This document shows, piece after piece, positions 27,526 to 30,123 of a DNA stretch of 64,000 nt (within the stretch, counting starts at the first letter, position 1; every line of letters begins with the position of its first letter). Source of the stretch: Candidatus Bathyarchaeia archaeon (GTDB taxonomy: Archaea; Thermoproteota; Bathyarchaeia; Bathyarchaeales; Bathycorpusculaceae); the NCBI GenBank assembly GCA_038873195.1, contig JAVZEV010000001.1, forward strand, positions 648,490 to 712,489, given 5' to 3'. The translations under genes and the position numbers were made by a program. The notes beneath the pieces are model-generated. The model was not told where the DNA came from and ran no database searches. It was given only the letters and a program-made list of their open reading frames with translations.

Positions 27526-27597
27526 TTTTGGGGTCTGCCCGTCATAAGTTCCTCATCTGCATAAATCAGACTGGGACGGCTACATCATCCCCCAAAA
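27526..27597 (-). ncRNA. Probable C/D box guide sRNA
   Basis: On the - strand a terminal stem TTTTGGGG/CCCCAAAA (27590-27597 with 27526-27533) encloses C box GATGATGT (27582-27589), D' box CTGA (27566-27569), C' box CAGATGAGG (about 27551-27559) and a weaker D box CAGA (27534-27537). The 12 nt before D' (27570-27581, AGCCGTCCCAGT) can pair with the 23S P-loop ACUGGGGCGGU over 11 positions including two wobbles; the +5 rule points to the guanosine equivalent to E. coli Gm2251. The D guide can pair with GCCCGUCA of the 16S 1400 region over 8 bp. It lies 40 nt behind rnp2 on the same strand. Confidence 0.65.
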
Positions 27598-27637: not shown

Positions 27638-27958
27638 CTAATGTTTTGTCTTTTTGAGTAGCGCCCTAATGGTTCCAGAAACAGCCAAAACATGGATTGT
27701 AGCAGGCTTGTTCCCAATACTGGTTATCACAGCTATTGCCGTTCTAACATTTTCGAGACTAACATGCGTAGCGCGGATAACAGCAAACTTTTCTTCTGCG
27801 TCATAATCAATCAAAGCCAAACCTGTCCGGCTTGCGCCATACTCGCCATAAAGCTTGGAAACGGAATTCCAAATCGTATCCATCAATTCTTTTGAAGTAA
27901 ACGTGTCTTCAGCATCTATTCTTAAGGCGAGGTAGCGCCACCTCACATTTCTTCGCAA
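27638..27958 (-). CDS. rnp2: RNase P protein component 2 (Pop5)
   Basis: 106 residues of the Rpp14/Pop5 family: WRYLALRIDAEDTF at the N-terminus, GEYGASRTGLALIDYD in the centre, and a C-terminal ATIHVLAVSGTIRAL strand-helix. Pop5 pairs with Rpp30 to stimulate the RNase P RNA in tRNA 5' maturation. Its start overlaps the end of rnp3 by 16 nt, the usual archaeal arrangement. Last protein gene of the leftward operon. Confidence 0.92.
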   Translation of the reverse strand: MRRNVRWRYLALRIDAEDTFTSKELMDTIWNSVSKLYGEYGASRTGLALIDYDAEEKFAVIRATHVSLENVRTAIAVITSIGNKPATIHVLAVSGTIRALLKKTKH

Positions 27959-28686
27959 TCTCTTCCTCTCCTTATAATACGTATTCCAGGCGCAACAAAC
28001 CGGGAATCCAGCTTTTCTCTATTTCTTCGAACGATTGCCACTGGATTTTCTGAAACCGCCTTTATGGCTGATGCTGTGTCTAAATCGAAAAGAGAAGCTA
28101 GGGAAGCCAATTCCCGCGGCTTGCGTAGTAACAGTTCTTCTGAAGCTCCGCTGGACATAACAATTGGAACATGAAACTCCTGCGCAATCGCTACTTCTCT
28201 TCGCAAATATGAAAGAAGCCTAGTTCTAGCTGGTCCTTCCAGAACAAGTAATGGTTTCAGGTCAATTTCAAGAGAGGCAAAGCTTTGTGAGGCTAATTCT
28301 GCTTCTGCTTTGTCAAAGAATCTTTTGTGGAAATCGACGGATTGGAAATTTAAGAGGTCTACACGGCGGTCTTTTGCTGCTTGTCTTGCCACACTTTTAG
28401 AGTCGCACATCACCGCGACTATTTCAAATCTTCTTCTAAAATTTCTTAAACTGCTCAATAATTCTTTGGGTGTTTTGGGTTTCAAATCAATGCGGGATGC
28501 AAAATCGACGCCGGCTTCGCTGCAAAGATTCTGCAATTGTGTAAGTCTGTCTTCAGGAAAGTTTGATGGTAAAGGCACTGCGATGAGGCGGTAACCTAAC
28601 TGAGAAGCTTTTCTTATTATGCGTGCAGTTTGTTCAAGGTCTCTCAAATTTGGGCATAAATGAAAGTCTGCAAAGATTCTTTTCAT
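27943..28686 (-). CDS. rnp3: RNase P protein component 3 (Rpp30)
   Basis: 247 residues. TIM-barrel-like Rpp30 features include FADFHLCPN at the N-terminus, YRLIAVPLPSNFPE, the conserved VDLLNFQSVDFHKRFFDKAEAELA block, and a C-terminal FVAPGIRIIRR. Partner of Pop5, encoded next. Its start overlaps the preceding RNA-binding gene by 4 nt, indicating translational coupling. Confidence 0.92.
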   Translation of the reverse strand: MKRIFADFHLCPNLRDLEQTARIIRKASQLGYRLIAVPLPSNFPEDRLTQLQNLCSEAGVDFASRIDLKPKTPKELLSSLRNFRRRFEIVAVMCDSKSVARQAAKDRRVDLLNFQSVDFHKRFFDKAEAELASQSFASLEIDLKPLLVLEGPARTRLLSYLRREVAIAQEFHVPIVMSSGASEELLLRKPRELASLASLFDLDTASAIKAVSENPVAIVRRNREKLDSRFVAPGIRIIRRGRDCEEM

Positions 28687-29983: not shown

Positions 29984-30123
29984 TTCATTCACCTCACACT
30001 AGTTTATGGTTCAGCCTTTGCAGGCTACATCCCAGCGGACGTTTAATCCGCCAATAGCTTTGATTCATAGCATCATGCAGTAAAATAAACTTTTCCGGAT
30101 AACTTGTAGCTTCTCGGAGTCTC

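What the first reader, a model, noticed from the sequence alone, without database searches (positions are those of the whole stretch)
27526..27597. C/D box guide RNA at the end of the RNase P/ribosomal operon, predicted to target the 23S P-loop
The box order C, D', C', D and a terminal TTTTGGGG/CCCCAAAA stem fit an archaeal C/D sRNA. The D' guide pairs over 11 positions (two wobbles) with the P-loop ACUGGGGCGGU; counting five from D' gives the guanosine equivalent to E. coli G2251, a position 2'-O-methylated in many organisms by protein enzymes or guide RNAs. It sits 40 nt after rnp2 on the same strand, so an operon of ribosome and RNase P proteins may also yield an rRNA methylation guide.
Basis: partly seen in the sequence, partly recalled or inferred. 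Interest (0 to 1): 0.7.

Follow-up and report, generated by a model that had tools for sequence, protein, structure and literature searches.

The report
Archaeal guide RNA for ribosome P-loop
A bathyarchaeal genome encodes a small guide RNA, present in dozens of its relatives, that very probably directs methylation of the spot in the ribosome where the growing protein's tRNA docks; the kind of RNA is well known, but this family and its own promoter had not been described in the papers and RNA library I could search.

Summary
The minus strand of 27526-27597 carries an archaeal box C/D guide RNA: terminal stem, C, a 12-nt guide, D', C', a second 12-nt guide, D. The D' guide pairs over 11 positions with this genome's own 23S P-loop, and the +5 nucleotide is G2251 in E. 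coli numbering. The RNA is conserved across Bathyarchaeia, and the same D' guide occurs in Thermoproteia, Asgard and DPANN archaea. Fibrillarin, Nop5 and L7Ae are present. No SpoU-family methyltransferase (the family of bacterial RlmB) was found here, and none passed the cut-off in 121 genomes searched.

Additions and corrections. (1) The second guide most likely targets U2593 of the peptidyl-transferase centre. (2) A BRE/TATA-like element sits at fixed distance upstream, also where rnp2 is not adjacent, so it is probably transcribed from its own promoter rather than from the operon. (3) Box D is CAGA, not CUGA, in 62 of 66 bathyarchaeal copies. (4) Copies that lost the second guide close the C/D stem by two more pairs.

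The target site and RNA class are known in archaea (PMC4644070). This is a new member of a known kind. Expression and methylation are untested.

The parts
27526..27597 (-). box C/D guide RNA gene (mature RNA, approximate ends)
   Evidence: sequence; conserved in relatives
27590..27597 (-). 5' half of terminal stem, TTTTGGGG; the GGGG part is near invariant, the TTTT part is not
27582..27588 (-). box C, AUGAUGU (consensus RUGAUGA)
27570..27581 (-). D' guide AGCCGUCCCAGU, pairs with the 23S P-loop; +5 nucleotide = G2251 (E. coli)
27566..27569 (-). box D', CUGA
27550..27556 (-). box C', AUGAGGA
27538..27549 (-). D guide ACUUAUGACGGG, pairs with 23S helix 93; +5 nucleotide = U2593 (E. coli)
27534..27537 (-). 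box D, CAGA (non-consensus, conserved: 62 of 66 copies)
27526..27533 (-). 3' half of terminal stem, CCCCAAAA
27617..27628 (-). BRE/TATA-like element GAAAGCTTATTT; predicted start of transcription near 27595
   Evidence: position profile over 53 non-redundant copies, same in rnp2-linked and unlinked copies
27638..27958 (-). rnp2 (Pop5, RNase P subunit), upstream neighbour
   Evidence: PF01900, E = 2.7e-21
27943..28686 (-). rnp3 (RNase P p30)
   Evidence: PF01876, E = 4e-31

Best explanation
It is a bathyarchaeal box C/D sRNA gene. The RNA forms a C/D kink-turn closed by a GGGG/CCCC stem and an internal C'/D' motif, binds L7Ae, Nop5 and fibrillarin, and directs 2'-O-methylation of 23S rRNA at G2251 (P-loop, D' guide) and probably at U2593 (helix 93 of the peptidyl-transferase centre, D guide). 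It is most likely transcribed from its own promoter in the gap after rnp2. Shown by sequence: anatomy, conservation, pairing and register with the organism's own 23S rRNA, machinery genes, absence of SpoU-family enzymes, promoter-like element. Inferred: transcription, RNP assembly, methylation.
For: Anatomy and 12/12-nt guide spacing. Strong conservation in relatives. D' guide pairs with own 23S 2373-2383 and the +5 position aligns to E. coli G2251. The guide base at position 11 follows the target: guide A with target U and guide G with target C in 15 of 19 genome pairs, 2 G-U and 2 mismatches from sister taxa (Fisher p = 0.023, not corrected for kinship). D guide: 31 of 66 copies pair with U2593 over at least 8 positions, 0 of 500 shuffles as good. 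In copies without a D guide, 32 of 35 gain two pairs beside the kink-turn against 7 of 31 with a guide. Fibrillarin, Nop5 and two L7Ae-family proteins are present. No SpoU family in the own genome and none over the cut-off in 121 genomes, against 14 of 14 controls. Promoter profile.
Against: No expression or methylation data exist for this organism here. Box D (CAGA) departs from the CUGA consensus. The match to Rfam archaeal C/D models is below the cut-off (snoPyro_CD 20.1 bits against 45). For this copy the D guide has an equal-scoring second site in 23S (own position 2443), ruled out only by comparison with relatives. About half of bathyarchaeal copies have no recognisable D target.
Confidence: 0.88

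Rival explanations
1. The RNA is a real C/D guide for G2251 but is cut out of the operon transcript that runs through rnp3-rnp2.
For: Same strand, 40 nt after rnp2. Most archaeal C/D sRNAs are reported to lack their own promoter and to be processed from longer transcripts (PMC7994747). The rnp2 neighbourhood recurs in Jordarchaeia, a Hodarchaeon and some Thermoproteia.
Against: A BRE/TATA-like element at positions -41 to -29 from box C in 53 non-redundant copies, alike in 22 rnp2-linked and 33 unlinked copies. At least 30 bathyarchaeal copies are not next to rnp2.
Confidence: 0.2
2. Only the D' guide is functional; the D guide is an orphan whose U2593 match is incidental.
For: 35 of 66 bathyarchaeal copies lack the D match; in this copy a second 23S site pairs equally well.
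Against: The same D target in the same register recurs in Thermoproteia (for example L253: 9 Watson-Crick plus 1 wobble, read by eye) and, more weakly, in Jordarchaeia; in Bathyarchaeia variation at the first guide base fits its unpaired place.
Confidence: 0.2
3. The element is a cis-regulatory kink-turn of the rnp2 mRNA that binds L7Ae (itself an RNase P subunit) and tunes RNase P or L7Ae levels.
For: Good kink-turn geometry in the rnp2 3' region; L7Ae is suggested by RIP-seq to regulate translation in archaea (PMC5539422, title and abstract seen).
Against: Conserved without rnp2 nearby in many genomes; conservation reaches guide letters that a kink-turn does not need; promoter-like element lies between rnp2 and the RNA.
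Confidence: 0.04
4. Chance arrangement of box-like words.
For: Boxes are short; rRNA complementarity of this quality occurs for about 6.5% of random 12-mers.
Against: Near-identical RNA in many genera with diverged flanks; reversed-pattern control 0 of 398 genomes against 45.
Confidence: 0.01

Closest known systems
Archaeal box C/D sRNAs predicted to guide methylation at E. coli G2251 (Dennis et al. 2015, PMC4644070)
   Same: RNA class, box order, +5 rule, same 23S nucleotide (predicted there in three of the archaea studied).
   Different: Different lineage; CAGA box D; paired with a U2593 guide; own promoter. The guide sequences in that paper's supplements could not be compared here.
Rfam RF00095 snoPyro_CD
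   Same: C, D', C', D layout; best Rfam match over the full length.
   Different: 20.1 bits against a 45-bit cut-off: works like it, not a member by Rfam's rule.
Eukaryotic C/D snoRNAs for the G2251 equivalent (Arabidopsis 25S Gm2620; yeast Gm2619, human Gm4196; PMC11542601)
   Same: Same nucleotide methylated, RNA-guided at least in Arabidopsis.
   Different: Common descent of the guide genes not tested.
Bacterial RlmB (SpoU family), E. coli Gm2251
   Same: Same nucleotide product.
   Different: Stand-alone protein enzyme; no SpoU-family gene over cut-off in this genome or 120 relatives.

Membership tests
archaeal box C/D sRNA | box C RUGAUGA and box D CUGA forming a kink-turn | tested here: inconclusive
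   Box C AUGAUGU (6/7). Box D CAGA: keeps the two G/A positions of the sheared pairs but puts A in place of U; conserved in 62/66 copies, never CUGA.
archaeal box C/D sRNA | internal C' and D' boxes | tested here: met
   D' CUGA, C' AUGAGGA.
archaeal box C/D sRNA | guides of about 12 nt between C and D', and C' and D | tested here: met
   12 and 12 nt here; 12 is the commonest C'-D spacing in relatives, 38 of 65.
archaeal box C/D sRNA | terminal stem closing the C/D kink-turn | tested here: met
   8-bp stem; GGGG/CCCC near invariant; extra pairs with compensatory variants in guide-less copies.
archaeal box C/D sRNA | guide complementary to rRNA with target at +5 from box D/D' | tested here: met
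   G2251 and U2593 equivalents in own 23S.
archaeal box C/D sRNA | host encodes fibrillarin, Nop5, L7Ae | tested here: met
archaeal box C/D sRNA | expressed 50-70 nt RNA that directs 2'-O-methylation | not testable with these tools
   no transcriptome or modification data
Rfam RF00095 snoPyro_CD | score at or above the gathering threshold | tested here: not met
   20.1 bits against 45

The most novel reading that the evidence does not exclude
This is one branch of an ancient orthologous dual-guide sRNA gene (G2251 plus U2593) that sat downstream of rnp2 in the common ancestor of Asgard and Thermoproteota archaea, stayed there in several lineages, moved in others, and is the only means of P-loop methylation in Bathyarchaeia, which have no RlmB-like enzyme. 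C/D sRNAs are usually thought to turn over quickly.
Probability: 0.35. Interest if true: 0.5.

Novelty: new member of a known kind. Interest (0 to 1): 0.36.

Why it matters
Gm2251 contacts the CCA end of P-site tRNA and is made by a protein in bacteria and by guide RNAs in eukaryotes. A deeply conserved archaeal guide, in a class with no SpoU-type enzyme detected, would fill in the RNA-guided route across Archaea and gives a rare case where one C/D sRNA gene can be followed over phylum-level distances. It also offers a natural series of one- and two-guide forms and a conserved departure from the box D consensus to test.

Tried and rejected
The first target scan used the wrong strand of the 23S locus and missed the P-loop; it was repeated on the right strand. 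A 16S target for the D guide (U1406 equivalent by my reading, 8 pairs) was considered and dropped: weaker than the 23S site. Bacterial hits of the collection scan were read as chance matches: no convincing second half, and they alone contain the perfect CCGCCCCAG word. Rfam at gathering threshold finds nothing at this place. tRNA targets were not tested. Supplementary tables of PMC4644070 could not be opened, so guide-by-guide comparison with that study was not possible. Literature searches found no paper on bathyarchaeal box sRNAs and no archaeal report of U2593 methylation, within the open-access library only.

Full report
What is there. The minus strand of 27598-27526 reads TTTTTGGGGG ATGATGT AGCCGTCCCAGT CTGA TTTATGCAG ATGAGGA ACTTATGACGGG CAGA CCCCAAAA. 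Read as RNA this is a terminal stem, box C, a 12-nt guide, box D', box C', a 12-nt guide, box D and the closing half of the stem. The C side gives a three-nucleotide bulge (GAU) followed by GA, and the D side offers GA followed by CCCC, which is kink-turn geometry. A generic C-D'-C' pattern is found once in 64 kb, here, with 0.03 expected. The fold is better than shuffles (z = -2.78).

Organism. Neighbours are rnp2, rnp3, a PF01877 protein, eL13 and eL15 upstream on the same strand, and a convergent rhomboid gene downstream.

Targets. The genome has one detected 23S and one 16S rRNA. The D' guide pairs with 23S positions 2373-2383 (GCUGGGGCGGC) over 11 positions, nine Watson-Crick and two wobbles; the +5 nucleotide is 2377, aligned to E. 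coli G2251. On its own this match is not rare (26 of 400 shuffled guides do as well). The D guide pairs with 2719-2728 over ten positions; its +5 nucleotide is 2722, aligned to E. coli U2593. An alternative site at 2443 scores equally for this copy, but the forms of the guide in relatives (ACUCAUGACGGA/G) pair well with U2593 and vary freely at the first, unpaired base.

Conservation. A BLAST search of 121 relatives gives a match at E<=1 in 102, many of them near full length. An exact pattern for box C, the P-loop guide and D' hits 45 of 398 genomes of the phylum; the reversed control hits none. The pattern also finds C/D-like RNAs in Micrarchaeota, Altarchaeota, Nanobsidianus, Jord-, Baldr-, Njord-, Heimdall- and Hodarchaeia, Sulfolobales and Desulfurococcaceae, but only 6 of 227 genomes in the phylum of the Jordarchaeum. 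Across 19 sRNA/23S pairs the guide base at position 11 follows the rRNA base (p = 0.023 without correction for kinship).

Variation inside Bathyarchaeia. Among 66 distinct copies box D is CAGA in 62, CGGA in 2, CCGA in 2 and never CUGA. The A can pair with the box C uridine that normally faces the U of CUGA (inference). About half of the copies keep the U2593 guide. In those that do not, 32 of 35 extend the C/D stem by two pairs (mostly UC with GA, twice CG with UG), against 7 of 31 in copies with the guide. The simplest reading is that freed guide letters were recruited to strengthen the kink-turn.

A fixed wobble. The perfect complement of the P-loop would be CCGCCCCAG. All 46 hits in the phylum carry at least one U there, nearly always CCGUCCCAG; the perfect word appears only in bacterial chance hits. 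Tuned release of the product is one possible cause; this is speculation.

Promoter. Aligned on box C, 53 non-redundant copies show A-rich positions at -41 to -38 and a T/A element at -34 to -29 with G absent from -34 to -31. The profile is alike in 22 copies within 400 nt of rnp2 and 33 copies without it. Here it is GAAAGCTTATTT at 27628-27617, some 20-25 nt before the stem. The RNA therefore probably has its own promoter. The rnp2 neighbourhood is nonetheless old: rnp2 ends 81-211 nt upstream in two Jordarchaeia, a Hodarchaeon, a Desulfurococcaceae genome and two other genomes of the phylum.

Machinery and alternatives. Fibrillarin and Nop5 genes are adjacent, and two L7Ae-family genes are present. 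SpoU-family methyltransferases, which include RlmB, are not detected in this genome and none passes the cut-off in 121 genomes, while all 14 control genomes have them. Other enzyme families were not searched.

Comparison with what is known. Dennis et al. 2015 predicted C/D-guided modification of E. coli G2251 in three archaea (PMC4644070). Gm at the G2251 equivalent is seen by cryo-EM in Methanosarcina acetivorans (PMC12605026). Arabidopsis uses a C/D snoRNP for it (PMC11542601). So target and mechanism are known; the bathyarchaeal family, its box D variant, the two-guide pairing and the promoter are additions. It is not a member of any Rfam family at threshold.

Verdict. A real and well-conserved C/D guide RNA, a new member of a known kind.

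Noticed in passing
window 30003-30051 (-): Euryarchaeota-type eL15 leader (RF03144, 45.6 bits) before the eL15 gene at the head of the same gene array, in a bathyarchaeon.
   Followed up: no
L124, L068: L124, a contig filed under Candidatus Kaiserbacteria (Bacteria), carries a Micrarchaeota-type C/D sRNA with the P-loop guide; probably a misbinned archaeal contig. L068, also Kaiserbacteria, looks like a chance match.
   Followed up: no
D' guide 27570-27581 and homologues: The guide keeps a G-U wobble against the P-loop in all 46 hits of the phylum; the perfect complement is never used in the archaeal copies seen.
   Followed up: partly
L248, L249, L250, L252 (Thermoproteota): In these copies the P-loop guide is followed by CTGA with no clear C' after it, but TGATGA lies upstream, so the guide seems to sit in the D rather than D' position.
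   Followed up: no
121 bathyarchaeal genomes: No SpoU-family (PF00588) methyltransferase over cut-off in any, although all 14 control genomes have one.
   Followed up: partly
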